Part shown: piece after piece, positions 9,463-51,767 of the stretch
Position numbering within the stretch: position 1 is the stretch's first letter
Layout: each line of letters starts with the position of its first letter
Assembly: GCF_006175995.1 (NCBI RefSeq)
Contig: NZ_VDMB01000001.1
Span: 124,001 to 188,000, forward strand
Length of the DNA: 64,000 bases
Source: Desulfobotulus mexicanus
Lineage (GTDB): Bacteria > Desulfobacterota > Desulfobacteria > Desulfobacterales > ASO4-4
Direction: 5' to 3'
Notes under the pieces: model-generated
What the model was told of the DNA's origin: nothing
The model's input: the letters and a program-made list of their open reading frames with translations, nothing else
The model's database searches: none
Made by a program: the position numbers and the translations under genes

Positions 9463-9472
9463 GCCATATCCC

Positions 9473-10951: not shown

Positions 10952-12004
10952 TTATACCATCAGGCTCCCGTTGGGTTCATGGGAGGGCTGGGGGTTGTCG
11001 GCAAAGACCTCAAGGATTAGTTCTTTCAGGATCTGTCCGTTTTCCGCGCTGCGGATACGGGCGTGCATGCGGTGTCCGAAGGGATAGACGGCCATGGCAT
11101 AGGGAAGGATTTTTTTAAAAAGCCTTAAGCCCCGGATTTCACCGAAATGACGGCAGCAGCTTTCGTGTATGGAAAGGAGGACTTCTGCCGTATCCGGTGG
11201 TCCTGCAAGTTTTCCCGTCCACAGGGCAAAGAGCCAGGGCCTTGCGGCGGCCATGCGGCCGATGCTGAGACCATCACAGCCTGTTTCTTCCAGCATTTTC
11301 AACCCGTCTTCCGGGGTAAAGACATTGCCATTGCCGAAAACCGGTATGGATACGGCTTCTTTAACGGCTTTGATGTATTCCCACCTTGGCCTTCTGGATC
11401 TGCGGTCCGGTGCTACTCTGGGGTGGAAGGTGAGAAGGTCGCAGCCTGCATCTTCCAGCCGACGGGCCAGTTCAAGGGCTTTCTCCGGTTTGTCCTCCCA
11501 GCCTGTGCGGAATTTTACAGACAGGGGGATGGAAACGGCGGCCCGGACTTCTTTTACGATGGCAAGGGCCTGATCCGGATTTCTGAGGAGTGCCGCACCG
11601 GCTCCATGCTTGCAGATGGCTGAAACAGAACAGCCGAAATTCAGATCCACACCAAAAAAACCTTCCTTTTCTATCCTTTGGGCAGCCCTTGCCATGGTAA
11701 TGGGTTCTGCACCGAAAATCTGGCAGACCAGGCTGTTCAGTTCTTCCGGATGCCAGCGGAAAACTTCGGAGATGGCAGGGTTTTCGTGGGGCAGGGCCTT
11801 TGCGCTGCACATTTCAGTGAAAAGAAGGCCACAGCCGCCGAAACTTCTTATGCTCTCCCGGAATGCCAGATGATTAATACCGGCCATGGGTGCCAGAAAT
11901 ATACGGGAGGATACGGTTCTTCCTCTGATATCTATGGGTGTGGTAAGTTTCTGTGCCAGTGTCTCGTATGGCGGGGTGTAAGAGGAAGAAGGGGGAAGAT
12001 GCAT
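10952..12004 (-). CDS. tRNA-dihydrouridine synthase family protein
   Basis: This 350-residue flavoprotein reduces uridine to dihydrouridine in tRNA. The TIM-barrel start is IFLAPMAGINHLAFR, and the catalytic-Cys region reads DLNFGCSVSAICKHGAGAAL. Most Dus enzymes have GCP here and HGRTR later, while this protein has GCS and FHPRVAPDRRSRRP. The C-terminal barrel part (PVFGNGNVFTPEDG, DGLSIGRMAAARPW) holds the flavin phosphate site. The two variant motifs mark it as a divergent branch, so DusA/B/C assignment is not made. It is followed by the sigma-54 activator with a gap of about 95 bases. A strong ribosome-binding site is not visible. Confidence 0.88.
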   Translation of the reverse strand: MHLPPSSSYTPPYETLAQKLTTPIDIRGRTVSSRIFLAPMAGINHLAFRESIRSFGGCGLLFTEMCSAKALPHENPAISEVFRWHPEELNSLVCQIFGAEPITMARAAQRIEKEGFFGVDLNFGCSVSAICKHGAGAALLRNPDQALAIVKEVRAAVSIPLSVKFRTGWEDKPEKALELARRLEDAGCDLLTFHPRVAPDRRSRRPRWEYIKAVKEAVSIPVFGNGNVFTPEDGLKMLEETGCDGLSIGRMAAARPWLFALWTGKLAGPPDTAEVLLSIHESCCRHFGEIRGLRLFKKILPYAMAVYPFGHRMHARIRSAENGQILKELILEVFADNPQPSHEPNGSLMV

Positions 12005-12509
12005 GTTGCTTGACGCTTTCGGGTTCGGGAGGTTAGAGTAAGGAATTTTATATTAAACTATCAGAAAAGGTCTGATACTATACCTTGGATTGATTTTTTG
12101 GGAACGGTATTTTTTCTGTGTTCCTTTCAGAAGTACCTGACTTCTGAGTAACTTCACAAGTTACCTTATGACAAAAGGCCGTAACATGGCGTGGGTTGCT
12201 GTTCAGCACAGTTTGTTCCGACACTCCAATGCTGAAATTGCAGCAGCTTCGGTGTTATTGCAAGGCGCTCTGGCTGTTTGCAAGTGACGTTGCAATCGTT
12301 TCGGATCAGAGCTTTGCAGGCCTGTGCGAAAGAAGCGGCAAACTGTCTGAGCCGCCACAAAGGCAGCGTACCAAGGCTTGCTATGGTAATCAAAAAGCCT
12401 ATCCTGCCTGTGGCGGGGAGTTTTTGCCGCTTCCGCACAGGGCAAGAAGCTCTAAGAATAAGATTGCGTCACGGGCAAACAGCCTGGGTGCCGTGCATCT
12501 GTTTGGTAC

Positions 12510-13606
12510 TAATAAGATCATAACACACTCGACATTAAGCTAAAATATACTGGGTGTCTTGTGCTCTAAAAAAACTGGCAACTCTTACGGTTTTCTTTTG
12601 CAATGATCTCAAGATGGAGAAGACCTTTTTTCTGAGGTCTTCCGGGCCTGAAACAACCATTTTTCCAATCTTGTGATGTTTCAGGTATCCCCATACCATT
12701 TCATCCGGATTCAAATGAGGGGAGTATGGAGGCAGGAAGAACAAGCGGAGCTTTCCTGCCGTTTCTTCAACAAACTTATTGACCTTGCCTGATTTATGGA
12801 CAGGATGCCCGTCCACAATGAGGAAGATGGGAGAATCAGCCTTGTAAATCAGACGTTTCAGAAATGAGATAAACTTATCGGAATTCATTTTTCCGTCAAT
12901 GGTCATGAATCGGAGTTCCCCCGAGGGAGAGATGGCCGAAACCATGTTGATACCAAAGCGAGCCCCCGTTTTTTCAACGACTGGGGTGACTCCTGTGGGA
13001 GCCCAGGTCGTCCCGCTGTGGTAGTCTGATCTTACGGTTGATTCATCGGCAAAAAAGATTTTTGCATTCTCTTTTTCAGCCTGTTTCTTTATTTCCGGGA
13101 ACTCATTTTCAACCCATTCCTTTACCCGGTCTTCGTCCCTCTGCCAGGCTTTTTTTAAAGGCTTCTGTGGCGAAAAACCAATTTTTTTCAAAAGACGACC
13201 GACAGTGGCATTACTTATGGAAACATCGAACTCCTTTTTGATAAACTCCCGAATCATTTCACGGGTCCACAGAGCAAATGGAAATCCGTAGTCCATAGGA
13301 TTTTTATCCGCAATCTTCCAGAAAAGCTCATCAAAATCTTTGGTATGGAACTTAACGGGCCGACCTGGAATCGGTTTCGTCTTTAAAGCGTCAAGGCCGC
13401 CTTTGCGGTATTTGGCTATCCACTGGTAAATTGCGGATCGATGGTAACCCAGAGCCCTGGCGATAACCTCTGGGCTTTCACCCGATTCGATCTGCTGGAC
13501 AGCGCGTATACGGATAGCCTCACGGGTCTTATGATCGAGTTTTCTAGCGTCTTGTTTTTTCATAAGCAGCAATATACATCATGTCGAGTTGGTTTTGAAC
13601 TTTTTA
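12510..13606 (-). mobile_element. IS630-family insertion sequence, intact
   Basis: The element is about 1.1 kb and is bounded by TA dinucleotides, as IS630/mariner elements are. Imperfect inverted repeats of 26 bp occupy 12510-12535 and 13581-13606. They share 21 positions, with the inner eight (CTCGACAT) identical. The single gene it carries is full length. It sits inside copy 1 of the palindromic element, whose right end resumes at 13607 with the sequence found in copy 2. Confidence 0.88.
12535..13572 (-). CDS. IS630-family transposase
   Basis: This 345-residue DDE transposase mobilises the surrounding element. The N-terminal helix-turn-helix region (residues 10-75, ALGYHRSAIYQWIAKYR) would bind the ends. 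A second winged-helix-like part includes ISNATVGRLLKKIGFSPQ. The catalytic acids appear as FFADEST, FLIVDGHPVH and LNPDEMVWGYLK, giving the D, D and E of the family. The length is usual and there is no frameshift, so the enzyme may be active. The stop codon reaches the left terminal repeat. Confidence 0.95.
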   Translation of the reverse strand: MLLMKKQDARKLDHKTREAIRIRAVQQIESGESPEVIARALGYHRSAIYQWIAKYRKGGLDALKTKPIPGRPVKFHTKDFDELFWKIADKNPMDYGFPFALWTREMIREFIKKEFDVSISNATVGRLLKKIGFSPQKPLKKAWQRDEDRVKEWVENEFPEIKKQAEKENAKIFFADESTVRSDYHSGTTWAPTGVTPVVEKTGARFGINMVSAISPSGELRFMTIDGKMNSDKFISFLKRLIYKADSPIFLIVDGHPVHKSGKVNKFVEETAGKLRLFFLPPYSPHLNPDEMVWGYLKHHKIGKMVVSGPEDLRKKVFSILRSLQKKTVRVASFFRAQDTQYILA

Positions 13607-35457: not shown

Positions 35458-38400
35458 ATGCAGAGAATACTGGATTGCCGCCTTCCCCTGCTTGCCTGTC
35501 TGCCCCAGAAAGTTTTCAACCTCCGCTACATGGAAAGCCTGCACAGGGCAGGGGTCCTTCCGGTTCTGGATGCGGAGTTCATGGACACAGAAACTATTCT
35601 GGAGGCAGGCAGGACGCTGGATGAAAAAAATATCCTCTTTGCCATCCGGGTTCCCCTTTCCCGAAAAGACCTTCTGGAAAAGCTTAAAAAAAATCCCCCC
35701 CGATATCTGGAAGCCCTCATTTTTTCCTATGATTTTGAAGATGCCCTAAATAATCTGGATTTGAAAGCTTGGCCCGTCAAGCGCCTTCTGGAGCTGAAAC
35801 ACACGGGCCATGGCCCAGAGCTTTCCCGCATGGGCATCCATGGGCTGGTACTGAAGGGACTTGAGGCCGGAGGTTCCGTTTCCCGGCACACGGCCCTCAT
35901 TCTCATGCAGGAATATCTTGAGACAAGTGATCTTCCCCTTTTCATCCACGGGGGTGTGGGCATGCACACGGCAGCGGGGTTTTTCAGTGCAGGAGCCAGC
36001 GGCCTTGTGCTGGATGCCCAGCTCTGGCTCTGCCGGGAATCCCCCCTTGGGGAGAATTTCCGCAAGCTTTTGAACGGCATTGAGGATCTCGACACCCTGC
36101 TGCTGGAAGGCCCGGAAGGCTCCCGTTACCGTTTTTTTGCAAGGCTCGGCACCCGTGTGGCCCAGGATCTGAAAAAGCTGGAGCCCCGCTTTGTGCTGGG
36201 TGCGGATCAAAAAAGCGAAGAAGCCCGCATCCTTTCTGAAACCCTGAAGGAAAAAATGGCCGATCTTTCCGATGGGGCTGCGGAAAGTGTGCAGAGTCTT
36301 TTCTATCTGGGTCAGGATGCCGTGTTCGCAAGGCATTTCCTTCGCAGGGGCGAGGGTGTGGAAGCCATGATCCACGGGCTTTTTGAGGAAGTGAGAAAAA
36401 GCCTTGCCGTTTTAGAAACGGCCGACCCCTTACGGGCCGGAAGTCCCCTGGCAAAAGAGCACGGGGTGAGGTACCCCATCATGCAGGGCCCCATGGCCAA
36501 CATCAGTGATAACGTGGACTTTGCCGAGAAGGTGGCAGAGGCCGGAGGCCTTCCCTTTTTTGCCATGGGCAGCCTGCCTGTTCCCTTGGCGGAAACTATG
36601 CTGGAAAAGGCTTCGGAAAAGGGCATTCCCTGCGGTGCGGGGCTCATCGGCATTGAGGCCTTCAACCGCCGCCTTCCCGAGCACATGGATCTTACCCGCA
36701 AATTCAACATTCCCTTTGCCCTCATTGCAGGGGGAAGCCCCGCCCAGGTGCGGGAGCTGGAAGCCTCCGGTATCCGCACCTACCTGCATACCCCCGCCAC
36801 CCGCATGCTGGAAAATGCCCTTGTCGGCGGGGTGTCCCGTTTCATTCTGGAAGGTACGGAGTGCGGCGGGCATGTGGGCTCCCTCACAAGTCTTGTGCTC
36901 TGGGAAATGGGCACGGAGCTTTTGTCTCAGCTGGATGACGCTGCATTGCAGGAAAAAACCCTTGTGTATGCAGGGGGCATTTCCACGGAAGCCGCCTCCC
37001 ATTTCATCTCCGGTATGGCAGCAGGCCTTTGCCAAAGGGGTCTTAAGATAGGCATTCAGGTGGGAACGGCCTATCTTTTCACCCGTGAGATTGTGGAAAC
37101 GGGTGCTCTCCATACCCGGTACCAGAAGGAAGTGCTGCACCAGAAGGAAACTCAGGTGATTGGCCGCACCGTAGGCCTTCCCTGCCGCACCGTGGAAAGC
37201 CCCTTTTCCGTCAGGATGCGGGAGCTGGAGCACAGCCGCATGGAAAAGGGCGATCCCCTTTCCGGCCGCAAGGATGCCTTTGAAAAGGACAACATGGGCT
37301 CCCTTCTCATTGCGGCCAAGGGCATGGTGCCGGATTTTTCCGGAAAAAGTGTCGAATGCCGGATGCTGGAAGAAGAGGACATCTTTGAAAAGGGCAACTT
37401 CTGCGTGGGCGATTCCCTGGTCTTTTTCAAAGACACCTGCACGGTGAAGTCCATCCACGGCCGTCTTTTTGACAACAAGACGGCCCTGCGGCGGCATCTT
37501 GATACCCTGGAACGGCTTACCCGTCCCGATGGAGAAATATTTGATGAAATTGCCGTGGTGGGCATGGGCTGCGTGCTGCCGGATGCTCCTTCGCCGGAGG
37601 CTTTCTGGGAGAATATCTTACACCGCCATGTTTCCATCCGGAAGATGGAGGAAAGCCGCCTGCCTTCCCTCTATGTGAGTGAGGATAAAAGTGCGGAAGA
37701 TAAAAGTTATACCTCCGTGGCCGCAGATGTCCGTGATTTTACCTTTGATCCGGTAAAATACGGGCTGGATGCAAAAACCGGAGCCCGCCTTTCCCGCAGT
37801 CAGCAGCTGGTTCTGGAAGCCGCGTATCAGGCGGCCAGATCCGGTGGTTTTTCTGTGCAAAACAGTAAGGGGAGTAAAACCCTTCCTTTAGAAACGCCTG
37901 TGATTCTGGCCTCCTGTCTTGGCAATGAGCTGACCCATGATCTGCACATGAAATACTGGACTCCGGAAATCCTTTCTGTCCTGAAAGCTTTGCCTGAGTT
38001 TGAGACCCTTGAAGAAGGGGAAAAGACGGCTCTGGTGAAAGGGATCAGAGAAAGCCTTGCGGGAAAATTTCGTAATGAGCCGCCGGATACGGCTGTACTC
38101 AACATTGAGGCCAGCCGGGTGGCCGCCTGTCTGGGAGTGGAAGGCCCCAACTATCTCATCGATGCGGCCTGCGCCACCAGCTTTGCGGCCCTGGACTGCG
38201 CCATGCAGGAGCTTCTTTCCGGCAGGGCCCAGGCGGCCATCGTGGGAGGCATCAATACCAACCTCGCTCCGGAAACCTTTGTGGGCTTTTCCAAGATGGG
38301 GGCATTGTCTTCCAAAGGCTCCTGGCCCTTTGACGGCCGGGCCGACGGCTTTGTGCTGGGCGAAGGGGCTGTGGTTTTTATCCTGAAGCGCATGCGGGAT

Positions 38401-41400
38401 GCTGTGGCCGAAGGGGATAAAATCTTTGGCGTGATCCGGGGCATGGGAGCCAGCTCCGATGGCAAGGGCAAGGCCATTGCCGCCCCCAATGTGAAGGGGC
38501 AGATACTGGCCATGGGCCGGGCCTTTGAAAACATGAAACGGCCCCTTTTGCCCGAAGCCGTCACCTTTCTGGAAGCCCATGGCACCTCCACCCGCATGGG
38601 CGATGCGGCAGAACTTGAAAGCGTGAAGGGTTTTTACGGCAAAAACCCAAGCCTTGGGGTGAGTTCCGCCAAAAGTCAGGTGGGTCACCTTCTGGGAGGG
38701 GCCGGAGCCGCAGGGCTTTTAAAGGCCCTTCTGGCCCTGAACCACGGTATTCTGCCGCCCAACGGAGATTTTGAGGAACTGGGTCCGGTGCATGATCTTT
38801 CGGGAACGGGCATCTTTGTGGTAAAGGATGCCTCTCCCTGGCCCGTAGAAAAAGACCAGCCCCTTCTGGCCGCCGTCAGCGCCTATGGTTTCGGAGGGAT
38901 TAACTACCACTGCGTATTGGAAGCCCCGGCCTCAGACTACAGCCCCCTTAAGAGGGAGGTATTTCCCGACCTTTCTTTTGATCCCAATGATCAGCGCATC
39001 GTGGTGGCGGGCATGGGGCTGGTGCTGCCCGGAACTGAAGATGAAGACAGCTTCATGGAAACCATGGCTTCGGGAAAAAGCCTTCTCACGGAAAAAGCCC
39101 ATCTGGGTTTTGATGCAAAGGCCTATGCCGAGGAAGACAGGGAATACCGCATTCCCTATCTCAAGGCCGGTCTGTGCAGGGATTTCACCTTTGATTCCAT
39201 GCGTTTTCGCATTCCGCCCAAAAGCCTTGCCTTCATCGACAGGGGCCAGCTTCTCGCCCTTACGGCGGCGGACCGGGCCATCCGTGGGGCGGGTCTGGAA
39301 GAGGAGCTGAAAACACCTGCCAACCGGGTCGGGGTGATGCTGGGTGCCATATCCAGTACCCGCCATGTTGAAAACATTCTCCGCATCCGCCTTGATTTTG
39401 TGGCGGCCTGTATGGAAAAAACCAGGGGGCTTTCGCCGGAAAAAAGCGCAAAGCTGGCGGAAGCCCTGACCACCGTCTTCCGCAAGCGCCTGCCGCCCAA
39501 TACGGAAGACACCACGCCGGGGCTGCTCACCAATATCGTGTCCGGCAGGGTAGCCAATGTGCTGAACTGCAACGGACCCAACTTCACCGTGGATGCGGCC
39601 TGTGCCTCTTCGGGCTTTGCCCTGCGGGCAGCCATGATGCACCTTGTGTCCGGCCGCTGCGATTATGTGATCAGCGGCGGGGTGGATTCGGCCTTTTATC
39701 CTGCGGCCCTTCTGGTCTTCAAGCGTCTCGGTTTGCTTTCCAAGGAGGACACCCGGTTCTGGGATAAGGGCAAGTCTCAAGGGGTGAACCTCTCGGAAGG
39801 AGCTGCGGTGCAGGTGCTGACCACTTACGCCAAGGCAAAGGAAAAGGGCCTTCCCATTTTAGGAGAAATCCGCAGCATTGCCATGGCCTCCAGAGCAGGA
39901 GAAAGTGTTTTCGCCCTTTCAGAAAATCTGCTGGCAAGGGAAATGGGGGCAGCCTACCGGGAAGCGGGCATGCTGCCTTCGGACCTGCACCACCTCGATC
40001 CCTTCGGCTTTGGTCACAGAATTCCCGACAGCATGGAAAAACGGGCCGTGCACATGGGCCTTGACGGCGCATCGGGCATTTCCTTTGGCAATATCAAGCC
40101 GGAATACGGGTATTACAAAGGGGCCAATCCCGCCATCATCCTTTCCCGGCTCCTTCTCATGCAAAAAAACAGAAAAAGACTGCCCCATCACAGCTTTGAT
40201 CCGGAAACCACCCTCATGGAAGCAGGCGGCCCTCTGGTGAGCCCGGATGAGGCCGAAGACTTTGGTCCGATGCGAAGACCGGCCCTTGCCACCAACCTTC
40301 ATGGCTTTGGGGGCAACCATGGGCATATGGTAGTTTCTGCCCTGCCTCCCTTCCTCCGGAAAGAAGAGGTCGGAAAAGAAGAAAGGCTGGCCGATTCCCT
40401 GCAGCCCTCTCTGGCCCTGCCAGCCACCCTTAGCGGAATGTCCGTGCTCCTTTCCGGTCAGGGAGCCCAGAAGGTGGGCATGATGAAGGATCTCTACGGA
40501 GCCTATCCTGAAATCCGCAGCCTCGGGGATCAGGCGGAAAGGCTCTTTCAGGCAAAACGGGGAAAAAGTCTCTTACGCCTGATGTTTGAAGGAAAGGGCG
40601 GGGATCTCAACCACACGGAAAATACCCAGCCTGCGGTATTTCTGGCCTCTGCCGCCATCCACAGCCTGCTTGTGAAAAAGGGCCTGAAGCCCGATGCCTG
40701 GCTGGGCCACAGCCTTGGGGAATATACGGCCCTCTTTGCCTCGGGCGCTTTAGATTTTGATGCGGCCTTTTCTCTGGTGCTCACCCGCTCTTCTCTGATG
40801 CAGCGGGCCGCAGGGGACTTTCCCGGCAGCATCATGGCTGTCTTCAAGGGGCCGCAGGAGGTGGCGGATCTGATTGCTGCCTTTAATGCCGAAGGGGTGT
40901 ACATCGCCAATAAGAATGCCCCCGGTCAGACCGTGGTTTCCGGCGAAAAAATGGCCATGCTGCGTTTCGGGGAGTTTCTCACCCAGAAAAGTGTGCTTTT
41001 CCGCAAGCTGAACCTTTCCGGAGCCTTTCACACGCCGCTCTTTGCCGATGCCGCCAAAGGCATGGCCAAGGCCCTCGGCCCCTTGCATTTTCAGACCAAA
41101 GCCTTGCCCCGTATCATCTCCAATGTCACGGCAAAACCCTATCCCGAAGATGAGAACGCGGTGAAGGAGCTTCTCACCCGGCAGATGGTTTCTCCCGTCG
41201 AGTTCATGGAAGGGGTGCGCCATCTCTATGATCAGGGCTGCCGCTCCTTCCTTGAGGTGGGGCCGGGCAATCTTCTGGCCCGTCTGGTGGAAAGCCACCG
41301 CCTGGAAGGGTTGGATCTGCGCTCTGCCGTTGACCCCAAAAAGGGTGAAAGCGCCAGCATGGAGACCCTCTTCACAAGCCTTGGCAGGGAAAAAGGCTTG

Positions 41401-44400
41401 TCTGAAAAAAGAGAGGTGCCGCCACAGACGAAGAACCATAGCGCCAGAAATCAGGCCGATATCAAGGGGAGTTTCACCATGAAAGAGGATGAGGACAAAG
41501 GGTTTGCCGCATTTCTGGAGGCCAACCGCAGCCGCATGGAAGCCGCCCTTTTGGAGGAATATGAGAAGGAGCAGGATGGTCTTCGCTTAAAAGCCTATGA
41601 AAATTTTGGTTTCTACACGGGTGCCGTTTCCATTGCTGGTGTTTCCGTGGGCCTTCCCGGAAGCGGCAGGGCCGTTTTTTCCGATGATCATTTTGACAGC
41701 CTGATACAGGGGCAGAATTTCATTGAAGCACTGGGGCAGGAAGAAAAGGAAGCCATGTTCCAGCGCAATATCCGCAGGCTGCACAAAACGCCGGAAGGCA
41801 ATGCACGTTTTGTGGACATCGCCTCCACGGACGAGGTGATTCATCTTGCGGGAAAACTCGGCTTCTTTGATCCGGAAGGGGAGTACGGTCTGGAAAAGGG
41901 GCAGGACATCAGCATTGCCCTTGCCATGGCCGCAGGTCTGGAAGCCCTGAAGGATGCCCGCATTCCCCTGCTGGAGGGCCAGAGCAAAGCAGGCTCCCGC
42001 CTTGCCGGAGAGGAGCTGGCCCTGCCTGCTTCCATGCAGGAAACTACCGGTGTCATCTTCACCGGCCTTTTCCCCGGATGGGAAACCCTCATCCATGAAA
42101 TGGAGGCCTTCCAGCAGCACCGCTATCAGGAAGGGCCGGGACGGGCCCTTGAAAGTCTCTACTATGATCTCATGGAAAACATCGGCGAGCGCAATCTCAA
42201 ACAAAGGGTGGCGGGCTGGTTCCACGCCATCCGTCCCCTCTGGGAGAAGAAGGAGGAGTACCGCTTTGACAGTACCTTCCTCGATAAAATCACCCCCCTT
42301 GCCTCCGCCCACTTTGCCAAAATGATCCGGGCCCGTGGTCCTAATGTGCACTTGAGCGGAGCCTGTGCTTCCACCACTCAGGCCATTGCCGTGGCCGAAG
42401 ACTGGATTCGCAGCGGCCGCTGTGAGCGGGTGGTGGTGATTGGTTCGGAAACGGCCACGGCATCGGGTCAGGGCCCTTGGATCAGTGCGGGATTTTTAAG
42501 CCTGGGCGCTGCCTCCATTGAAAAGGAGATTTCCAAAGCAGCCAAGCCCTTTGATGCGGATCGCAACGGCACCCTGTTGGGTGCCGGAGCCACGGCCCTT
42601 GTTGTGGAAAGAAGGGACCGTATCCGGGAACGCGGCCTTGAGGGGCAGGCGGAAATCCTTGGCACCTTCCTTGCCAATGCGGCCTTCCACACCACCCGCA
42701 TTGATGTGCCTTATCTGGCAGGAACCATGGCCCGTTTTGTGCGGCAGGTGGAGGCCCGCCATGGTCTTGATGCGGAAAGCTACGCTTCCCGCATGGTGTT
42801 CATGTCCCACGAAACCTTCACCCCTGCGCGGGGCGGCAGTGCGGATGCGGAAATTGAGGCCCTGCGTGCGGCCTATGGCCGGGATGCGGGCAAAATCACC
42901 ATCACCAACACCAAGGGCCTCACGGGCCATACCCTGGGGGCGGCCATTGAAGACGCGGTCATGGTGAAAGCCCTGCAAAGGGGCCAGACCCCGCCCGTGG
43001 CCCACCTGAAGAAGGTGCCGGAGCATTTCAGCGATCTGAAGTTCAGCCGTGGAGAAAAGGGAGACTTCCAGTACGGCCTGCATTTTTCCGCAGGTTTTGG
43101 CTCCCACTTTGCCCTGCTCATGGTGAAGCGCACGGAAGAACGGGCCACGGAAAATAACGCCGCCTATGAGGCCTGGCTCTCTGCCATCTCCGGCATGGAA
43201 AAGCCCGACCTCAAGATGAAAAACCGGGTGCTGGTGCTGGCAAGCGCTCCGGGTTTTTCGGGAGAAAGTCTTCCCGTCCTTACAAAGGAAAAACCCCCTG
43301 CCCCTGTTATGAAGGCAAAGGCTGAGCCGAAGGTCTCTTCCCGGGTGAAGATTCTGGAAGAAATCCGGAACATTCTTTCCGAGCAGACGGGCTATGGCAC
43401 GGACATGCTGGCGGAAGATCTGGATCTTGAGGCGGATCTCGGCATTGATACGGTAAAACAGGTGGAAATTTTCTCCAAGGTCATGGGGCATTTCGGCCTT
43501 GGAACCAAAGAGGACGCGCCTTTGCGGGAGCTTTCCACCTTAGGGAAAATTGCGGACTACATTGCGGCCCAGTCGGGCGCAGTATCCCTTGAAGAAAAAG
43601 AGGTGGCAGAAATTTCTGCCGCAGGTGTTTCCGGGAGAGAGGGTATCCTTTCAGAAATCCGGAACATCCTCTCCGAACAGACGGGGTATGGCACGGACAT
43701 GTTGGCCGAAGATCTGGATCTTGAGGCGGATCTCGGTATTGATACGGTAAAGCAGGTGGAAATTTTCTCTAAGGTCATGGGGCATTTTGGCCTTGGGGCC
43801 GAAGAGGATGCGCCTTTGCGGGAGCTTTCCACCTTAGGTAAAATTGCGGACTACATTGCGGCCCAGTCGGGCGCGGTATCCCTTGAAGAGAAAGAGGTGG
43901 CAGAAGTTTCTGCCGCAGGTGTTTCCGGAAGGGAGGCCATCCTTTCAGAAATTCGGAACATTCTTTCCGAGCAGACGGGCTATGGCACGGACATGCTGGC
44001 CGAAGATCTGGATCTTGAGGCGGATCTCGGCATTGATACGGTGAAACAGGTGGAGATTTTCTCTAAGGTCATGGGGCATTTTGGCCTTGGGGCCGAAGAG
44101 GACGCGCCCCTGCGGGAGCTTTCCACCTTGGGTAAAATTGCCGACTACATTGCGGCCCAGAAGGGGGCCAGCGCTCCCGAAGAAGACGGAAGGGGGGAGA
44201 GCCTTGTTTCTGAAAGTCCCGGAAGCGAAGAAGATCCTTCTCTTCTTCCGGCAGACCCTAGCGGCAGTGAAAAAGGGCTTTTCCGCTTTGTGCCGGATGT
44301 ACGCAAAGCTCCTGCGGAGGCAGGCCCCCGTTTTGGTATTTCAGGTCGTAAGGTGCTGGTGACCTTAGACGATCAGGGCCTTGCCGCACCCGTGATGGAA

Positions 44401-46737
44401 GGCCTTGAAGCCGCAGGTGCCGTGATTCTCACCGCAGGCCGGGACAGGGGCGATTATCTCCTTGAAGACCGGGATGCGGAAAAAAGCGCCCTCCTTTTCG
44501 AAGAAATTGCCAAGGCCCATCCGGATCTCTGCGGCCTTGTGCTGCTCCATCCCTTGAATACGGAGGTGCCAGAAGGCCGTGAGCGCATGCCCGCCGCCCT
44601 CTTTACCGCCATCCATGCCCTGCGGGAGTCTTTAAACCGGCAGGGAGCCTTCATTGCCATGCCCGCCTTCCAGTCCGTGATCTTTCCCACGGCCATGGGC
44701 ATCCGGGAAGGCGAGATGCGTCCGGACCCGGTGCAGGCGGCCTTTTCCGGTTTTCTGAAAAGCCTTGCCCGGGAGTTTCCCCATACCCGCATCAAGGTTA
44801 CGGATTTCGGGGACAAGCGCTTTGACGGCCCCTCCATGGCCAGCCGCTTTGTGAAGGAACTCCTCACCGGCGATGGCCGGGTGGAAACGGGCTTTGTGGG
44901 GGAAACCCGCTTTCTGCCCACCCTCCTTGAAAAAAAGGTTCAGGGGCAGAAGAACATCCTTTCCGGCTGCACCGTCCTTGTCACCGGCGGGGCAGGGGGC
45001 ATTACCTTTGAGATGGTGAAGGCCCTTGCGGAGGAAGAAAAGGATGTGGCCTTCATCCTTGTGGGCCGTTCGGACTTAAAGGATCTCACTCCGGAGACCG
45101 CAGGTCTTTCTTTAAAGGATCTCATGGCCCGTCTGGCGGATAAAATGCCGGGCCTGTCTCCCCTTCACCTGAAAAAAACCGCAGAGCGCATGCAGGGCCT
45201 GCACCGCACGGCGGAGAGTCTCCGTCTTCTGGAGGAAAAGGGCGTTTCCGTACGCTATGTGTCTGCGGATGTGACGGATTCTGCCGCCGTTCAGAAACTG
45301 GCCGAAAGCTTCCCGGAGGTGGATGCCATCATCCACGGGGCAGGTGTGGAGGAATCCCAGGTCTTTGATAAGAAAACTCTGGATTCCTTCCTCCGGGTCT
45401 TCACGCCCAAGGTCAGGGGTATGGCCCATCTGCTGAAAGCCTTCTCCGGCCATGATCTCAAGGCGATTTTCGCCTTTTCCTCGGTCACGGCCCGTTTTGG
45501 CAATGCCGGTCAGTGCGATTACACCGCAGCCAACGACATGCTGGGCAAAATGGTCTTGGCGGAGCAGGTGAAGCGGCCCCACTGCGTCACCAAGGTGCTG
45601 GCCTGGACAGCCTGGGAAGGCACGGGCATGGCCACACGGGGTTCTGTGAAAACCGTGCTGGAAAGCCGGGGCCTCACCTTCCTGCCCTTAAAGGCGGGAA
45701 TCCGCTTCTTCCTTGGGGAGTGCCGCAGCCCCGAACCCTGCGAGGCCGTGTTCACGGGCAAAGACCGGGCCTTTGATCCCGATGGCCTGCTGCCCCTTGC
45801 CGGTCAGGGGCCGGTGCTGGATGCCTTTCTGGATGCAGGGCTGGAGCTGGAAGGTGAAACGGCCCGTTTTGTCCGCACCCTGACTTTGGAGCGGGATCTT
45901 TTCCTCAAAGATCACAGTCTGGACGGCGTTCCCCTTTTCCTCGGAGCCACGGGTCTTGAAACCCTGGCCGAGGCGGCCCTTCAGGTGAGCGGAAGGCGCT
46001 ATGTGACGGAAATCGAGGAATTTTCCATTCCCTATGGGATCAAGCTTTTGAAAAACCGTTCCAAACGGTTGGAAATCCGGGCCAAAGGCCCTGAAGCGGA
46101 TAGCGTGGCTGTAGAAATGCTTTCTTCCTTCACACGGCCCGGTTCTTCGGAAACCACGGAAACCCTGCACTATACGGGCAGGGTGCAGACGGCGGATCTG
46201 CGGCCCGGCGTTCAGCTCATGGTCATTCCCGATCTGCCGGGCCTGCGCCACAAGGGCAGCCTCGGGGATCTCATCTACCGGCCCACACGGCTTTTCATGG
46301 ACGGGGTTTTCCGCAGCATTGAGTCCGTGGCGGGTTTTGACGGCAGGCAGCTTGTCACCCTGATGCGGGATCCGGGGCAGGGCTTTTTCTTTGCCGGTGT
46401 CAAGGCACCTGATTTCCGAATCCCTGTGGTGCTGCTGGATGCCATGTTCCAGACCGGAGGCCTGTTCAACATGCTGGGAAAGGGTACGCCTGTGCTGCCC
46501 TCTTCCTTTAGTCGGATGCGGATTTTTGATATGCCCGAAGCCCGTACGGCCTATGTCTGCGTGACGGAGAAAAAGGCGGAACTGGAAAAGACGGATCTCT
46601 TTGACATGGCCCTTGTGGATGCCAACGGCCGCCTCATGGTGCGGGTGGAGGATTTTCAGATGATCCGCATTCCTGCGGCGGCGGGATTTTCCCTGGAAGG
46701 GGAGGTGGAGGCCTTTGGGGTGAAGAAGGTTTCTTAG
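35458..46737 (+). CDS. Giant multidomain polyketide/fatty-acid synthase-like protein (PfaA/PfaD-like architecture)
   Basis: This is a single 3,759-residue reading frame. By residue: 1-320 looks like a TIM-barrel half (FIHGGVGMHTAAGFFSAGAS). From 330 to 650 is a nitronate-monooxygenase/PfaD-like flavin enoyl reductase (YPIMQGPMANISD, ALIAGG, EGTECGGHVG). From 695 is KS1 with Cys905, His1041 and His1077. From 1178 is KS2 with Cys1382 but Phe1516 and Tyr1552 in place of both His. From 1660 is an acyltransferase (Ser1752 in GHSLGE, His1858 in GAFHTP, malonyl-like). From 2055 is KS3 with Cys2303, His2451 and His2491. Carrier-like domains are centred at 2665, 2763 and 2861. A ketoreductase begins near 3170 (TGGAGG, Ser3342, Tyr3355, Asn3359). 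A dehydratase-like double hot-dog has His3486 and Asp3661. The start has AGGAG 11 bases upstream. It looks like PUFA-type synthase genes pressed into one chain. The product is unknown. No thioesterase or phosphopantetheinyl transferase is near. Confidence 0.9.
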   Translation: MQRILDCRLPLLACLPQKVFNLRYMESLHRAGVLPVLDAEFMDTETILEAGRTLDEKNILFAIRVPLSRKDLLEKLKKNPPRYLEALIFSYDFEDALNNLDLKAWPVKRLLELKHTGHGPELSRMGIHGLVLKGLEAGGSVSRHTALILMQEYLETSDLPLFIHGGVGMHTAAGFFSAGASGLVLDAQLWLCRESPLGENFRKLLNGIEDLDTLLLEGPEGSRYRFFARLGTRVAQDLKKLEPRFVLGADQKSEEARILSETLKEKMADLSDGAAESVQSLFYLGQDAVFARHFLRRGEGVEAMIHGLFEEVRKSLAVLETADPLRAGSPLAKEHGVRYPIMQGPMANISDNVDFAEKVAEAGGLPFFAMGSLPVPLAETMLEKASEKGIPCGAGLIGIEAFNRRLPEHMDLTRKFNIPFALIAGGSPAQVRELEASGIRTYLHTPATRMLENALVGGVSRFILEGTECGGHVGSLTSLVLWEMGTELLSQLDDAALQEKTLVYAGGISTEAASHFISGMAAGLCQRGLKIGIQVGTAYLFTREIVETGALHTRYQKEVLHQKETQVIGRTVGLPCRTVESPFSVRMRELEHSRMEKGDPLSGRKDAFEKDNMGSLLIAAKGMVPDFSGKSVECRMLEEEDIFEKGNFCVGDSLVFFKDTCTVKSIHGRLFDNKTALRRHLDTLERLTRPDGEIFDEIAVVGMGCVLPDAPSPEAFWENILHRHVSIRKMEESRLPSLYVSEDKSAEDKSYTSVAADVRDFTFDPVKYGLDAKTGARLSRSQQLVLEAAYQAARSGGFSVQNSKGSKTLPLETPVILASCLGNELTHDLHMKYWTPEILSVLKALPEFETLEEGEKTALVKGIRESLAGKFRNEPPDTAVLNIEASRVAACLGVEGPNYLIDAACATSFAALDCAMQELLSGRAQAAIVGGINTNLAPETFVGFSKMGALSSKGSWPFDGRADGFVLGEGAVVFILKRMRDAVAEGDKIFGVIRGMGASSDGKGKAIAAPNVKGQILAMGRAFENMKRPLLPEAVTFLEAHGTSTRMGDAAELESVKGFYGKNPSLGVSSAKSQVGHLLGGAGAAGLLKALLALNHGILPPNGDFEELGPVHDLSGTGIFVVKDASPWPVEKDQPLLAAVSAYGFGGINYHCVLEAPASDYSPLKREVFPDLSFDPNDQRIVVAGMGLVLPGTEDEDSFMETMASGKSLLTEKAHLGFDAKAYAEEDREYRIPYLKAGLCRDFTFDSMRFRIPPKSLAFIDRGQLLALTAADRAIRGAGLEEELKTPANRVGVMLGAISSTRHVENILRIRLDFVAACMEKTRGLSPEKSAKLAEALTTVFRKRLPPNTEDTTPGLLTNIVSGRVANVLNCNGPNFTVDAACASSGFALRAAMMHLVSGRCDYVISGGVDSAFYPAALLVFKRLGLLSKEDTRFWDKGKSQGVNLSEGAAVQVLTTYAKAKEKGLPILGEIRSIAMASRAGESVFALSENLLAREMGAAYREAGMLPSDLHHLDPFGFGHRIPDSMEKRAVHMGLDGASGISFGNIKPEYGYYKGANPAIILSRLLLMQKNRKRLPHHSFDPETTLMEAGGPLVSPDEAEDFGPMRRPALATNLHGFGGNHGHMVVSALPPFLRKEEVGKEERLADSLQPSLALPATLSGMSVLLSGQGAQKVGMMKDLYGAYPEIRSLGDQAERLFQAKRGKSLLRLMFEGKGGDLNHTENTQPAVFLASAAIHSLLVKKGLKPDAWLGHSLGEYTALFASGALDFDAAFSLVLTRSSLMQRAAGDFPGSIMAVFKGPQEVADLIAAFNAEGVYIANKNAPGQTVVSGEKMAMLRFGEFLTQKSVLFRKLNLSGAFHTPLFADAAKGMAKALGPLHFQTKALPRIISNVTAKPYPEDENAVKELLTRQMVSPVEFMEGVRHLYDQGCRSFLEVGPGNLLARLVESHRLEGLDLRSAVDPKKGESASMETLFTSLGREKGLSEKREVPPQTKNHSARNQADIKGSFTMKEDEDKGFAAFLEANRSRMEAALLEEYEKEQDGLRLKAYENFGFYTGAVSIAGVSVGLPGSGRAVFSDDHFDSLIQGQNFIEALGQEEKEAMFQRNIRRLHKTPEGNARFVDIASTDEVIHLAGKLGFFDPEGEYGLEKGQDISIALAMAAGLEALKDARIPLLEGQSKAGSRLAGEELALPASMQETTGVIFTGLFPGWETLIHEMEAFQQHRYQEGPGRALESLYYDLMENIGERNLKQRVAGWFHAIRPLWEKKEEYRFDSTFLDKITPLASAHFAKMIRARGPNVHLSGACASTTQAIAVAEDWIRSGRCERVVVIGSETATASGQGPWISAGFLSLGAASIEKEISKAAKPFDADRNGTLLGAGATALVVERRDRIRERGLEGQAEILGTFLANAAFHTTRIDVPYLAGTMARFVRQVEARHGLDAESYASRMVFMSHETFTPARGGSADAEIEALRAAYGRDAGKITITNTKGLTGHTLGAAIEDAVMVKALQRGQTPPVAHLKKVPEHFSDLKFSRGEKGDFQYGLHFSAGFGSHFALLMVKRTEERATENNAAYEAWLSAISGMEKPDLKMKNRVLVLASAPGFSGESLPVLTKEKPPAPVMKAKAEPKVSSRVKILEEIRNILSEQTGYGTDMLAEDLDLEADLGIDTVKQVEIFSKVMGHFGLGTKEDAPLRELSTLGKIADYIAAQSGAVSLEEKEVAEISAAGVSGREGILSEIRNILSEQTGYGTDMLAEDLDLEADLGIDTVKQVEIFSKVMGHFGLGAEEDAPLRELSTLGKIADYIAAQSGAVSLEEKEVAEVSAAGVSGREAILSEIRNILSEQTGYGTDMLAEDLDLEADLGIDTVKQVEIFSKVMGHFGLGAEEDAPLRELSTLGKIADYIAAQKGASAPEEDGRGESLVSESPGSEEDPSLLPADPSGSEKGLFRFVPDVRKAPAEAGPRFGISGRKVLVTLDDQGLAAPVMEGLEAAGAVILTAGRDRGDYLLEDRDAEKSALLFEEIAKAHPDLCGLVLLHPLNTEVPEGRERMPAALFTAIHALRESLNRQGAFIAMPAFQSVIFPTAMGIREGEMRPDPVQAAFSGFLKSLAREFPHTRIKVTDFGDKRFDGPSMASRFVKELLTGDGRVETGFVGETRFLPTLLEKKVQGQKNILSGCTVLVTGGAGGITFEMVKALAEEEKDVAFILVGRSDLKDLTPETAGLSLKDLMARLADKMPGLSPLHLKKTAERMQGLHRTAESLRLLEEKGVSVRYVSADVTDSAAVQKLAESFPEVDAIIHGAGVEESQVFDKKTLDSFLRVFTPKVRGMAHLLKAFSGHDLKAIFAFSSVTARFGNAGQCDYTAANDMLGKMVLAEQVKRPHCVTKVLAWTAWEGTGMATRGSVKTVLESRGLTFLPLKAGIRFFLGECRSPEPCEAVFTGKDRAFDPDGLLPLAGQGPVLDAFLDAGLELEGETARFVRTLTLERDLFLKDHSLDGVPLFLGATGLETLAEAALQVSGRRYVTEIEEFSIPYGIKLLKNRSKRLEIRAKGPEADSVAVEMLSSFTRPGSSETTETLHYTGRVQTADLRPGVQLMVIPDLPGLRHKGSLGDLIYRPTRLFMDGVFRSIESVAGFDGRQLVTLMRDPGQGFFFAGVKAPDFRIPVVLLDAMFQTGGLFNMLGKGTPVLPSSFSRMRIFDMPEARTAYVCVTEKKAELEKTDLFDMALVDANGRLMVRVEDFQMIRIPAAAGFSLEGEVEAFGVKKVS
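43361..44160 (+). repeat. Three 294-bp tandem units encoding near-identical carrier-like domains
   Basis: Equal sequences begin at 43361, 43655 and 43949, so the period is exactly 294 bp (98 codons). Each unit encodes a carrier-type helix bundle (ILSEQTGYGTDMLAEDLDLE) and the motif ADLGIDTVKQVE, where the Ser that carries phosphopantetheine in other carriers is Thr. The units are almost identical, so duplication or gene conversion is recent. Confidence 0.95.
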
Positions 46738-48124: not shown

Positions 48125-49825
48125 ATGGAAAAACTAGAAAAGAGAAAGAAACAAGCAGAGCAAGGTGCAGGTTTTTTTGGAAAAAAGCTCCTGGCCCTGT
48201 CTTCGCTTTTTTTTCTTCAGGGTCCCATGGGTTTTGCCGGACTGGGGCTTGGAATGCTGGGTCTGGGGGCGGCTGTGCTTTTGCTGGCGGTTTCGGGCTG
48301 GTTTATCACAGCAGCAGGGGTGGCGGCACTTTCCCTTGCTACCCTGCACAGCTTTAATTATCTACAGCCAGCAGCCCTGATCCGTCTTCTGGCCATTAGC
48401 CGTACCCTGGCCCTTTACGGGGAGCGTATTGTTTCCCACGATGGTATTCTTAGTCTTCTACAGCGCTTGAGGCTCTGGCTCTTTGACGGACTTTCCAGCA
48501 TGAACCGTTTTCGTATGGCAGGTTTTGGCAGCGGTGAGCTGATGCAGCGTATGCTGGCGGATATGGATCGTCTGGATCAGTGGCCCCTGCGGGGGCTTGC
48601 CCCATGGGCCTGGGCCACAGGGCTCTCTGCCCTTGTCTCTGCTCTGCTGTTCTGGCTGCAGCCTGATCTTGCAGTGATTTTTCTTCTTTTTATCATTGCC
48701 GTATGGGGGCTTCTGCCCTGTTTCATACTGCTGCCGGTTCTTCGATGTACCCGTTCCCATACCCGGATGGAGGGAAAGCGCAGGCAGTTTCTCCTTGAGA
48801 CTCTGGCAGGTCTCATCACCCTGCGTACCACGGGTGCTTTTAGGGCCAGAGGTAAAGCTCTGGAAGCCATGGATAGCGAAATCCTCGGGAACCAGTGGCG
48901 TATACAGGTGTTTGGTCTTGTCGCCCAGCTTTTTATTCTGCTGAGCCTTTCCGCAGTGCTATGGATGGTGGTGTTCCATGGGGGAAGGGCCGTTGAGGCC
49001 GGTCAGTTTTCTGGGGCTGTGCTGGTGGGTATCGCCTGCGTGATTCTGGGACTGACGGAAGTGTTTTTGCCATTATCTGCAACCTTTCAGTCACTGGGTT
49101 TCACCCTTGAAGCCAGGGACCGGATCACTGATTCTGTGGCAGGAGCCAGGGAAATAAAGGGCGGTGTGAGATCCCTGCCACAAAATCTTTCCTTTTGCCT
49201 TGAAAATGTAAGTGCCCGTCAGAAAAATGCGGCAACGGGACCGCAGGGGGTTTCATTGACCCTGCATAGGGGCGACAGTCTCTGGATAGAAGGGCCTTCG
49301 GGCTGTGGAAAGTCCACTCTGGCTGCGGTTATGGCGGGCTGGCTTTCTCCGGAAGCAGGGGAGGTTCGGGTAAACGGTGTAGCCCTGATTGATGTTGAGG
49401 AAGGCTGCCTGCGCCGGCATGTGGGGCTTCTGGATCAGGATGTGCATCTTTTTCCCATGATGCTGGGAGAAAATCTCCGGCTTGCCAGCCCCCTTGCCGG
49501 GGATGATCTTTTGATGGACCTGCTTGATGAGGTGGCCCTTGGCGACTGGGCAAGGGAGCTTCCCGAAGGACTGAATACGCCCATCGGGGATTACGGGACA
49601 GGGGTTTCAGGGGGCCAGGCCCGGAGACTGGCCCTGGCCCGGCTTCTTTTAATGGAAACGCCGGTTCTTATTCTGGATGAACCCTTTGAAGGTCTGGATG
49701 CTGACACGGCGGATGCCCTGCTTACCATGCTGCGCAGAAGACAGAAGGATGGGATTCTCATTGTGATCAGTCACCAGCATCTGAAGGGGAGCTTCACCCA
49801 TTATCTTCGTCTGTCTCCAGCATAA
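48125..49825 (+). CDS. cydC: CydC-like ABC exporter subunit
   Basis: This 566-residue half-exporter has about six transmembrane helices and the CydC pattern YGERIVSHDGILSLLQRLRLWLF, then a C-terminal ATPase with Walker A EGPSGCGKST, signature VSGGQARRLALARLL and Walker B PVLILDEPFEG. CydDC exports cysteine and glutathione to the periplasm for cytochrome bd assembly. No cydD or cydAB lies in the window, so either the partner is elsewhere or it works as a homodimer. Its 3' part is duplicated at 51329-51767. Confidence 0.85.
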   Translation: MEKLEKRKKQAEQGAGFFGKKLLALSSLFFLQGPMGFAGLGLGMLGLGAAVLLLAVSGWFITAAGVAALSLATLHSFNYLQPAALIRLLAISRTLALYGERIVSHDGILSLLQRLRLWLFDGLSSMNRFRMAGFGSGELMQRMLADMDRLDQWPLRGLAPWAWATGLSALVSALLFWLQPDLAVIFLLFIIAVWGLLPCFILLPVLRCTRSHTRMEGKRRQFLLETLAGLITLRTTGAFRARGKALEAMDSEILGNQWRIQVFGLVAQLFILLSLSAVLWMVVFHGGRAVEAGQFSGAVLVGIACVILGLTEVFLPLSATFQSLGFTLEARDRITDSVAGAREIKGGVRSLPQNLSFCLENVSARQKNAATGPQGVSLTLHRGDSLWIEGPSGCGKSTLAAVMAGWLSPEAGEVRVNGVALIDVEEGCLRRHVGLLDQDVHLFPMMLGENLRLASPLAGDDLLMDLLDEVALGDWARELPEGLNTPIGDYGTGVSGGQARRLALARLLLMETPVLILDEPFEGLDADTADALLTMLRRRQKDGILIVISHQHLKGSFTHYLRLSPA

Positions 49826-50246: not shown

Positions 50247-51188
50247 GTGGGCAACCATGATATTTTTTTCAAGAAGATTTTAGATGTAGAGGGCCATGCA
50301 GAGGAACTGGTACGGTCATCACTGCCGTCTGCCATACTTGAGGGCTTGGATCTGAGTACCCTGAAGGAGGAAAAAGGCTCATTTTTAGGAGAGGAGCTGT
50401 CAGAGTATTTTTCTGATCTGCTTTACACATGCCAGTTTAAAGGTACGCTGATCCGTATAGCCCTGCTTTTTGAGCATAAAAGCTATGTGGATAATGATCT
50501 TCCTTTTCAGATTCATTTATACACGGGTGGTTTCTGGGAACGCTGCCGTAAGCAGAAGATAGAACGAACCCCCATAATTCCCATAGTGATCTATCATGGA
50601 GAAAGAAAATGGCAGCCCGGTCTTCTCAGTGACTGTTTTAAAGACCTGCCCCCCATGATCAAGCCCTTCATCCCGGATTCAGAGTACATTTTTGTGGATC
50701 TTTCAAGCTGGCAAGATGAAGATATCAAGAATAAGCTCTTTGCCATGGTTTCCATGAAGTTCTGCATGCTCATTTTTAAGAACGTTTTTGATCCTGATAA
50801 GCTGAAAGACAATATAAAGGAATATTTTGAGCTGGCATCCTCATTGTTTGAAGATGAAGATGGTCTCAAGATCATCAAAAATGTCATAGAGTACATTTTT
50901 AAAGCCACAGATCTTCAGCCTGAATATGTGGCTGAGACGATAGGTAGTGTAAGCCTGAAAGGAAAGGAGCTTGCTATGACTACAGCGGAAAGACTTATAA
51001 ATGAGGGCCGTAATGAAGGTGTATATAGCGAGAAGTACCAGACCATTATGCGCTTCTCAGAACTGAATATCAAACCTGAAGATATTGCCCATGGTGTTGG
51101 ACTTACACCAGAGAAGGTGCGGGCTGTTATTGCCGCAGGGGACAAGGGGCTGGATCTTCTCATAGGAGAGGATACTACCAAACATTAA
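50247..51188 (+). CDS. Rpn-family PD-(D/E)XK nuclease (recombination-promoting, transposase_31 type)
   Basis: This 313-residue protein has the Rpn/YhgA layout. The N-terminal nuclease core has DIFFKKILDVEGHAEELVRS, a Glu-X-Lys in LLFEHKSYVDND, and PIIPIVIYHGERKW. The C-terminus has the repeat-like helices MRFSELNIKPEDIAHGVG. The family is known to cleave DNA and raise RecA-independent recombination in E. coli. The start is GTG with AGAGGA about 6 bases upstream. It lies among duplicated scraps of cydC, of the MFS gene and of another Rpn gene, consistent with local rearrangement. Confidence 0.88.
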   Translation: MGNHDIFFKKILDVEGHAEELVRSSLPSAILEGLDLSTLKEEKGSFLGEELSEYFSDLLYTCQFKGTLIRIALLFEHKSYVDNDLPFQIHLYTGGFWERCRKQKIERTPIIPIVIYHGERKWQPGLLSDCFKDLPPMIKPFIPDSEYIFVDLSSWQDEDIKNKLFAMVSMKFCMLIFKNVFDPDKLKDNIKEYFELASSLFEDEDGLKIIKNVIEYIFKATDLQPEYVAETIGSVSLKGKELAMTTAERLINEGRNEGVYSEKYQTIMRFSELNIKPEDIAHGVGLTPEKVRAVIAAGDKGLDLLIGEDTTKH

Positions 51189-51328
51189 GCCCTTCTGATT
51201 TTGATTTTTACCCATCCATGACCGGACGCAGCCTTCACATGGGTTGTGCCCGGTTGTTGTCTTGTGGGGTATTCTGTGGCTCTTGTGCCTGGCCTTGTAT
51301 CCAACAGTTCTTCCGTATCACCCCCCCC
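51189..51328. other. Junction sequence between the Rpn gene and the cydC copy
   Basis: No match to any window sequence was seen. A run of eight C lies at the very edge of the cydC duplicate (51321-51328) and may mark the breakpoint. Confidence 0.5.
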
Positions 51329-51767
51329 GATTGATGTTGAGGAAGGCTGCCTGCGCCGCCATGTGGGGCTTCTGGATCAGGATGTGCATCTTTTTCCCAT
51401 GACGCTGGGAGAAAATATCCGGCTTGCCAGCCCCCTTGCCGGGGATGATCTTTTGATGGACCTGCTGGATGAGGTGGCCCTTGGCGACTGGGCAAGGGAG
51501 CTTCCCGAAGGGCTGAATACGCCCATCGGGGATTACGGGACAGGGGTTTCCTGGGGCCAGGCCCGGAGACTGGCCCTGGCCCGGCTCCTTCTCATGGAAA
51601 CGCCGGTTCTTATTCTGGATGAACCCTTTGAAGGTCTGGATGCGGACACGGCGGATGCCCTGCTTACCATGCTGCGCAGAAGGCAGCAGGAGGGGATTCT
51701 CATTGTGATCAGTCACCAGCATCTGAAGGGGAGCTTCACCCATTATCTTCGTCTGTCTGCCTCATGA
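51329..51767 (+). pseudogene. Duplicated 3' fragment of cydC
   Basis: These 439 bp match 49387-49825 with no gaps and few substitutions. It encodes the ATPase half without Walker A or membrane part, so it cannot work as a transporter. The signature VSGGQ has become VSWGQ, a sign of relaxed selection. The open frame is a leftover. Confidence 0.92.

What the first reader, a model, noticed from the sequence alone, without database searches (positions are those of the whole stretch)
35458..46737. One-gene polyketide/fatty-acid synthase with enoyl reductase, three KS, AT, carriers, KR and DH in an unusual order
The frame is uninterrupted over 11.3 kb and I can order the domains TIM-barrel half, PfaD-like enoyl reductase, KS, degenerate KS, AT, KS, three carrier-like units, KR, DH. 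PUFA synthases (PfaA to PfaD) spread these functions over several proteins with the reductase separate. Here the reductase is N-terminal and all is in one chain. It sits alone between a pil operon and a mechanosensitive channel gene, with no thioesterase or Sfp-type enzyme nearby. I recall similar unnamed giant proteins in other anaerobes and actinobacteria, but I know of no product for this layout.
Basis: partly seen in the sequence, partly recalled or inferred. Interest (0 to 1): 0.85.

Follow-up and report, generated by a model that had tools for sequence, protein, structure and literature searches.

The report
Fatty-acid megasynthase with threonine carriers
A single 3,759-residue protein in a sulfate-reducing bacterium (Desulfobotulus) carries almost everything needed to build a fatty chain, but its carrier domains have threonine where essentially all known carriers have serine, and the same oddity recurs in relatives from several bacterial phyla and Asgard archaea, often with the activating enzyme next door or fused on.

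Summary
The 11.3-kb ORF is real, intact and under purifying selection. The N-terminal 'half barrel' is modelled as a complete second TIM barrel. The reductase is FabK-like rather than PfaD-like. The degenerate KS has lost both catalytic histidines. KS1 and KS3, AT, KR, DH and ER keep their catalytic residues across relatives.

All three carriers, 33 of 33 repeats in ten orthologs, and 212 of 215 in a wider family have threonine at the phosphopantetheine site (DLGIDTVKQ instead of DLGIDS). The family covers Desulfobacterales, Spirochaetes, Asgard archaea, Chloroflexi, Elusimicrobia and Thermoplasmatota, plus one actinobacterium. Other carriers in the same genomes have serine. E. coli ACP S36T is reported as unmodifiable. 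Many orthologs have an Sfp-type phosphopantetheinyl transferase adjacent to the gene. In Asgard archaea and one other Desulfobacterota family it is fused to the synthase. In one complete Asgard genome the only carriers detected are these Thr-ACPs and the only transferase is the fused one.

Best reading: an iterative, fully reducing type I synthase of saturated long acyl chains that works on threonine-linked phosphopantetheine. The attachment is inferred, not shown. Product and release step are unknown.

The parts
35458..46737 (+). Complete megasynthase ORF, 3759 aa
   Evidence: orthologs; dN/dS
35458..36177 (+). N-terminal TIM barrel (res. 1-240), degenerate NMO/FabK-type fold, function unknown
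   Evidence: weak NMO hit E=0.0013; eight strands in the AF2 model; conserved in Desulfobacterales, Spirochaetes and Asgard
36463..37257 (+). FabK-like FMN enoyl reductase (res. 336-600), catalytic-motif His472 in EGTECGGHVG
   Evidence: His invariant
37540..38937 (+). KS1, condensing ketosynthase (res. 695-1160), triad C905/H1041/H1077
   Evidence: tree
38995..40332 (+). Degenerate KS = CLF-like domain (res. 1180-1625); Cys1382 kept, both His lost (GFG; GYYKGANPA)
   Evidence: KS-CLF of PfaC (6riw) aligns to 696-1381
40438..41295 (+). Acyltransferase, malonyl type (res. 1661-1946): S1752, R1777, GAFH1858
   Evidence: malonyl preference inferred from motif
41620..43137 (+). KS3, divergent FabF-like ketosynthase (res. 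2055-2560), triad C2303/H2451/H2491; own clade
43357..43563 (+). ACP1; phosphopantetheine-site residue is Thr2665 (codon 43450-43452 ACG)
43651..43857 (+). ACP2; Thr2763 (43744-43746 ACG)
43945..44151 (+). ACP3; Thr2861 (44038-44040 ACG)
44335..44937 (+). structural half of the KR didomain (res. 2960-3160)
   Evidence: position before KR and conservation in orthologs; inference
44950..45657 (+). Ketoreductase (res. 3165-3400), S3342/Y3355/N3359
45820..46683 (+). PKS-type double-hotdog dehydratase (res. 3455-3742), H3486 and D3661-xxx-Q3665

Best explanation
It is an iterative, fully reducing type I synthase that makes saturated, probably long, fatty-acyl chains, and its tandem carriers bear the phosphopantetheine arm on threonine. 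An Sfp-type PPTase transfers the arm from CoA to Thr2665, Thr2763 and Thr2861; in this genome the only PPTase detected is on another contig. The AT loads malonyl. KS1, paired with the non-condensing CLF-like domain, and KS3 do the condensations, possibly splitting early from late steps. KR, DH and the FabK-like ER then reduce each beta-carbon fully. The first barrel may pair with the ER as a built-in pseudo-dimer partner. Release needs an outside enzyme. Shown by sequence: domain order, intact catalytic residues, Thr at the site, and PPTase linkage or fusion in relatives. Inferred: that Thr carries the arm, the division of labour between the KSs, the barrel's role, the saturated product and release in trans.
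For: Thr carriers: 33 of 33 repeats in 10 orthologs and 212 of 215 ACPs in the wider family, with no other serine conserved above 30%. Alignment to solved ACPs puts Thr opposite the modified Ser, and in the AF2 ACP model helix II starts at that residue. The same genome's PfaA carriers read LGIDS, and the other carriers that could be read in the sampled genomes are Ser. Among 395 phylum genomes the Thr motif occurs only in the six with KS3-type synthases, and the reversed-pattern control finds none. PPTase: adjacent in some Desulfobacterales, Spirochaetes, Elusimicrobia and Chloroflexi, fused at the C terminus in Asgard archaea and bacterial family f114. In complete genome G447 (Ca. Harpocratesius repetitus) the only PF00550 domains found are the synthase's, all Thr, and the only PF01648 domain is the fused one. 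Nonomuraea has a single ACP and it is Thr. Synthesis: catalytic residues invariant across phyla; dN/dS about 0.1; acyl-CoA carboxylase genes beside relatives.
Against: No biochemistry was done. E. coli AcpP S36T is reported not to be modified by 4'-PP (PMC3340395), so Thr use is not a trivial swap, although that was the E. coli system. The window has no adjacent PPTase, and its only detected PPTase must also serve Ser carriers. Three of 215 carriers have Ser, two of them in a Heimdallarchaeum synthase that also has one Thr. The product is not predicted by any test here.
Confidence: 0.66

Rival explanations
1. An ordinary Pfa-type polyunsaturated fatty acid synthase whose subunits have been fused.
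For: Tandem ACPs, a KS-CLF pair as in PfaC (6riw aligned over 696-1381), the PfaA model TIGR02813 as best NCBIfam hit at 792.7 bits; KR-DH order as I recall from PfaA.
Against: TIGR02813 score is below its cut-off of 1010. No FabA-type DH/isomerase was found in it. ER is not PfaD. KS1 and CLF do not group with the host's own PfaA and PfaC-like KS domains. Carriers have Thr. The host has separate PfaA, PfaD and PfaC-like proteins.
Confidence: 0.12
2. The Thr-ACPs are not phosphopantetheinylated; they are scaffolds, and a serine carrier works in trans.
For: E. coli S36T ACP is unmodifiable and non-functional (PMC3340395). Serine ACPs such as AcpP are present in the host genome.
Against: In G447 no other PF00550 carrier was found and the only PPTase is fused to the Thr-ACP protein. 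The Nonomuraea relative has only one ACP and it is Thr. The ACP core around Thr is nearly invariant.
Confidence: 0.12
3. It makes a polyketide or hydroxylated/unsaturated chain instead of a saturated fatty acid, because reduction is partial.
For: Two active KSs and an uncertain ER partner barrel; class C relatives lack the fused ER.
Against: KR, DH and ER catalytic residues are intact and essentially invariant in the window's class.
Confidence: 0.2
4. A decaying remnant, as a review suggested for the pfa genes of Desulfobacterium autotrophicum.
For: Suggestion in PMC4882568; patchy distribution, 6 of 395 phylum genomes.
Against: dN/dS about 0.1 over the whole ORF; conserved active sites across phyla.
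Confidence: 0.03

Closest known systems
Type R 'secondary lipid synthases' (Shulse and Allen 2011, PMC3098273: Elusimicrobium, Roseiflexus, Koribacter, Solibacter), KS-MAT-CLF-ACP(3-6)-KR plus PPTase
   Same: KS1-AT-KS3-ACPn-KR core, with Thr-ACPs in my Roseiflexus, Chloroflexi and Elusimicrobia relatives; PPTase beside the gene in some.
   Different: The window protein adds two TIM barrels and a CLF-like domain. The domain at the paper's 'CLF' position keeps a full Cys-His-His triad in my relatives. The paper's text does not mention serine or threonine.
Pfa polyunsaturated fatty acid synthases (PfaA-PfaE)
   Same: Tandem ACPs, KS-CLF pair, AT, KR.
   Different: One chain, FabK-like ER, no FabA-type DH/isomerase, Thr in ACPs, KSs in other clades.
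Fused pfaDA / pfaBC-PPTase systems (Ottowia, Aquimarina, Flavobacterium; PMC13291983)
   Same: ER fused to the PfaA homologue, and a PPTase domain fused in some.
   Different: Two or more proteins; other domain set and order.
Heterocyst glycolipid synthase HglC [KS-CLF-AT] (type F, PMC3098273)
   Same: KS-CLF-AT block.
   Different: Other domains on separate genes.
FabK enoyl-ACP reductase
   Same: ER domain sequence and fold.
   Different: Here inside a megasynthase, preceded by a second barrel.

Membership tests
Pfa / secondary lipid synthase (Shulse and Allen) | KS, ACP and KR present, ACPs usually in tandem | tested here: met
Pfa / secondary lipid synthase (Shulse and Allen) | PPTase gene in direct proximity (named types) | tested here: inconclusive
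   not in the window; adjacent in G002 (same genus), G010, G011, G016, G022, G048 and others
Pfa / secondary lipid synthase, types M-T | PPTase motifs x(G/D)xP and hShxH | tested here: met
   read by eye on the PPTase alignment against the motifs in PMC3098273
PUFA-making Pfa synthase | FabA-type DH/isomerase domains | tested here: not met
   no FabA hit in Pfam scan; PF07977 matches in G000 are on other contigs
PUFA-making Pfa synthase | PfaA model TIGR02813 above cut-off | tested here: not met
   792.7 bits against 1010.1
PUFA-making Pfa synthase | ER of PfaD family (TIGR02814) | tested here: not met
   only the FabK model hit; host PfaD scores 574 bits
PUFA-making Pfa synthase | KS groups with PfaA or PfaC KS | tested here: not met
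   separate supported clades; deeper order unresolved, few references
Phosphopantetheine carrier (PF00550) | fold and profile match | tested here: met
Phosphopantetheine carrier (PF00550) | attachment residue is serine | tested here: not met
   Thr in all three copies
Phosphopantetheine carrier (PF00550) | is actually phosphopantetheinylated | not testable with these tools
   needs mass spectrometry
Type S of Shulse and Allen (D. autotrophicum HRM2) | same domain order | not testable with these tools
   shown only in a figure not held; a MAG titled Desulforapulum autotrophicum has the giant (L061)
Chain length factor | KS fold without condensing triad | tested here: met
   both His lost in class A copies; Cys retained in most, unlike classical CLF (from memory)

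The most novel reading that the evidence does not exclude
A widespread natural class of acyl carrier proteins bears 4'-phosphopantetheine on threonine, is activated by its own (often fused) PPTase, and gives some Asgard archaea a self-contained type I fatty-acyl synthase whose only detected carriers are threonine carriers.
Probability: 0.7. Interest if true: 0.87.

Novelty: new variant of a known kind. Interest (0 to 1): 0.77.

Why it matters
Serine is treated as the invariant anchor of the phosphopantetheine arm, and the S36T change is used as a dead control in E. coli. A large family, spread over bacteria and archaea, in which threonine is the rule would change how carriers are recognised by annotation tools, raise the question of what the PPTase and partner enzymes changed to accept it, and offer an orthogonal carrier system for engineering. 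The same protein family gives Asgard archaea, whose ability to make fatty acids matters for ideas on the origin of eukaryotic membranes, a single-gene candidate synthase that can be expressed and tested.

Tried and rejected
PfaD identity of the ER was tested and rejected. The idea that the giant is the host's only fatty-acid synthase was rejected: the host has a FabZ, AcpP, FabF, PfaA, PfaD and a PfaC-like protein with FabA domains. The idea that Thr is a sequencing error was rejected (three copies here, hundreds elsewhere, Ser in other carriers of the same assembly). An alternative conserved Ser in the ACP was looked for and not found. AcpS was searched and not found in G000. Literature searches for Thr carriers found none; only open-licence papers were searched. 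The plasmid collection gave one useful relative, Nonomuraea. Some PF00550 hits were printed from the wrong strand and were ignored.

Full report
OBSERVATION. The frame 35458-46737 (+) is open for 3759 codons. Pfam gives, in order, NMO/enoyl reductase, two ketoacyl synthases, acyltransferase, a third ketoacyl synthase, three PP-binding domains, KR and PKS-type DH. The window lies in a 3.83-Mb genome (G000) whose closest named relative by the KS3 domain is Desulfobotulus alkaliphilus (98%). Two congeners and at least seven other genera of the order carry full-length co-linear orthologs. dN/dS to the congeners is 0.10-0.12 overall and low in every domain, including the first barrel and the degenerate KS.

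CORRECTIONS TO THE DOMAIN CALLS. AlphaFold2 on residues 1-690 with an 18-row alignment (mean pLDDT 84, pTM 0.89) shows two runs of eight strands alternating with helices, i.e. two TIM barrels, not one and a half. Only the second carries the FabK-type EGxExGGH motif, whose His is invariant in all relatives. By sequence and by fold (TM normalised by target about 0.8 for FabK, about 0.43 for PfaD) the reductase is FabK-like. KS1 and KS3 keep Cys-His-His. The middle KS keeps Cys1382 in most copies but has lost both His, so it should not condense; it sits after KS1 as CLF does in PfaC, and the PfaC KS-CLF structure aligns over KS1 and part of it. The AT has Ser, Arg and the GAFH motif, which I read as malonyl-specific (inference). 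KR and DH residues are intact.

THREONINE CARRIERS. All three carriers read DLEADLGIDTVKQVEIF; the residue aligned with the modified serine of solved ACPs is threonine. Every repeat in ten orthologs (33 of 33) has it, as do 212 of 215 in the wider set. No other serine is conserved. In the AF2 model of one ACP helix II begins at that Thr. In the same genome PfaA has three LGIDSIKRVE carriers, and AcpP and NRPS carriers have Ser. In 395 genomes of the phylum the Thr motif occurs in exactly six, at the KS3-type synthase genes, and nowhere else, with zero in the control pattern. In E. coli the S36T ACP is described as unable to receive 4'-PP and is used as a dead control (PMC3340395), and S36T failed to replace the wild type in another assay (PMC9456370).

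THE PARTNER ENZYME. The window has no PPTase beside the gene, and G000 has one detectable PPTase elsewhere (C5) and no AcpS. In G002 (same genus), G010, G011, G016 and G048 an Sfp-type PPTase follows the gene, in G048 with a FabH between; in G022 it lies divergently upstream. The same holds for Desulfobacter vibrioformis (downstream), two Spirochaetes (upstream), Elusimicrobia and some Chloroflexi. In many other Desulfobacterales loci with enough flank no PPTase was found, so adjacency is recurrent but not universal. In Asgard archaea and in one other Desulfobacterota family (f114) the PPTase is fused to the C terminus.

A NATURAL TEST CASE. Two Asgard genomes, each a complete chromosome, were searched. 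In Ca. Harpocratesius repetitus the only PP-binding domains found belong to the synthase, all are Thr, and the only PPTase found is fused to it. In Ca. Heimdallarchaeum endolithica the same is true except that two of three carriers are Ser. Neither has a detectable FabA/FabZ. The Nonomuraea relative has one ACP, Thr, in an otherwise intact-looking synthase, followed by an acetyl-CoA carboxylase-type gene. Carboxylase genes also flank the Heimdallarchaeum gene, with an alpha/beta hydrolase directly downstream, and a carboxyltransferase gene follows the PPTase in G011. The simplest reading is malonyl supply, carrier activation and chain synthesis on Thr carriers, but the modification has not been observed.

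FAMILY AND EVOLUTION. Three layouts share KS1-AT-KS3-ACPn-KR-DH. Class A adds two barrels and the CLF (Desulfobacterales, Spirochaetes). Class B adds two barrels and a fused PPTase, without CLF (Asgard, f114). Class C lacks the barrels (Chloroflexi, Elusimicrobia, Thermoplasmatota, Nonomuraea). KS3 forms its own clade with full support; KS1 and CLF are separate from the host's PfaA and PfaC-like KSs (the deeper order is unresolved). 37 of 227 species searched in the phylum of Harpocratesius have the KS3 domain. Class C corresponds to type R of Shulse and Allen (PMC3098273); whether their type S (D. autotrophicum) is the window's kind cannot be told because only a figure shows it.

FUNCTION. 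The intact KR, DH and ER predict full reduction and a saturated chain; the missing FabA-type isomerase argues against polyunsaturation. KS-CLF pairing and tandem carriers suggest long chains by analogy with Pfa, Hgl and phenolic-lipid systems. No thioesterase is in the chain. The host has separate FAS II and Pfa genes, so this is probably a dedicated, not a housekeeping, lipid path here.

LIMITS. Genome-wide absence of other carriers or PPTases rests on PF00550 and PF01648 sensitivity (Pfam saw four of the five Harpocratesius repeats). Many relatives are MAG contigs. No experiment was done.

Noticed in passing
window 48125-49825, 50247-51188, 51246-51767: An ABC-transporter gene is followed by a YhgA-like (Transposase_31) gene and then by a second, truncated near-copy of the transporter's C-terminal end, as if an insertion had duplicated part of the target gene.
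   Followed up: partly
L039 (G000 C13) 4939-11646 and 11665-13317; L040 (G000 C11) 2133-8135: The host also has a canonical Ser-type PfaA next to a PfaD, and elsewhere a PfaC-like protein with FabA domains: a split Pfa system alongside the giant.
   Followed up: partly
L106, L107, L109, L112, L114, L119: Asgard archaea encode self-contained synthases of about 3,400-3,800 aa with fused PPTase; where looked at, biotin carboxylase and carboxyltransferase genes lie close by.
   Followed up: partly
L230, L231 (family f114): A Desulfobacterota family outside the window's order has the same fused-PPTase layout as the Asgard proteins, which suggests transfer between domains of life.
   Followed up: no
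L106:5180-15727: The Heimdallarchaeum synthase mixes one Thr and two Ser carriers under a single fused PPTase, a natural intermediate.
   Followed up: no
L131:6917-17350: In one Anaerolineae contig the class C synthase is split over consecutive ORFs: KS-AT-KS3-ACP, ACP-ACP, KR-DH, then PPTase.
   Followed up: no
L125:5065-14313: A Thermoplasmatota relative has two extra Thr-ACPs at the N terminus before KS1.
   Followed up: no
L061 / L037: The Desulforapulum autotrophicum copy has a shortened CLF with Asp in place of Cys, the furthest decay of that domain seen.
   Followed up: no
L159:788-1798: A FabH (KAS III) gene sits between the giant gene and its PPTase in G048, hinting at a starter-unit source.
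   Followed up: partly
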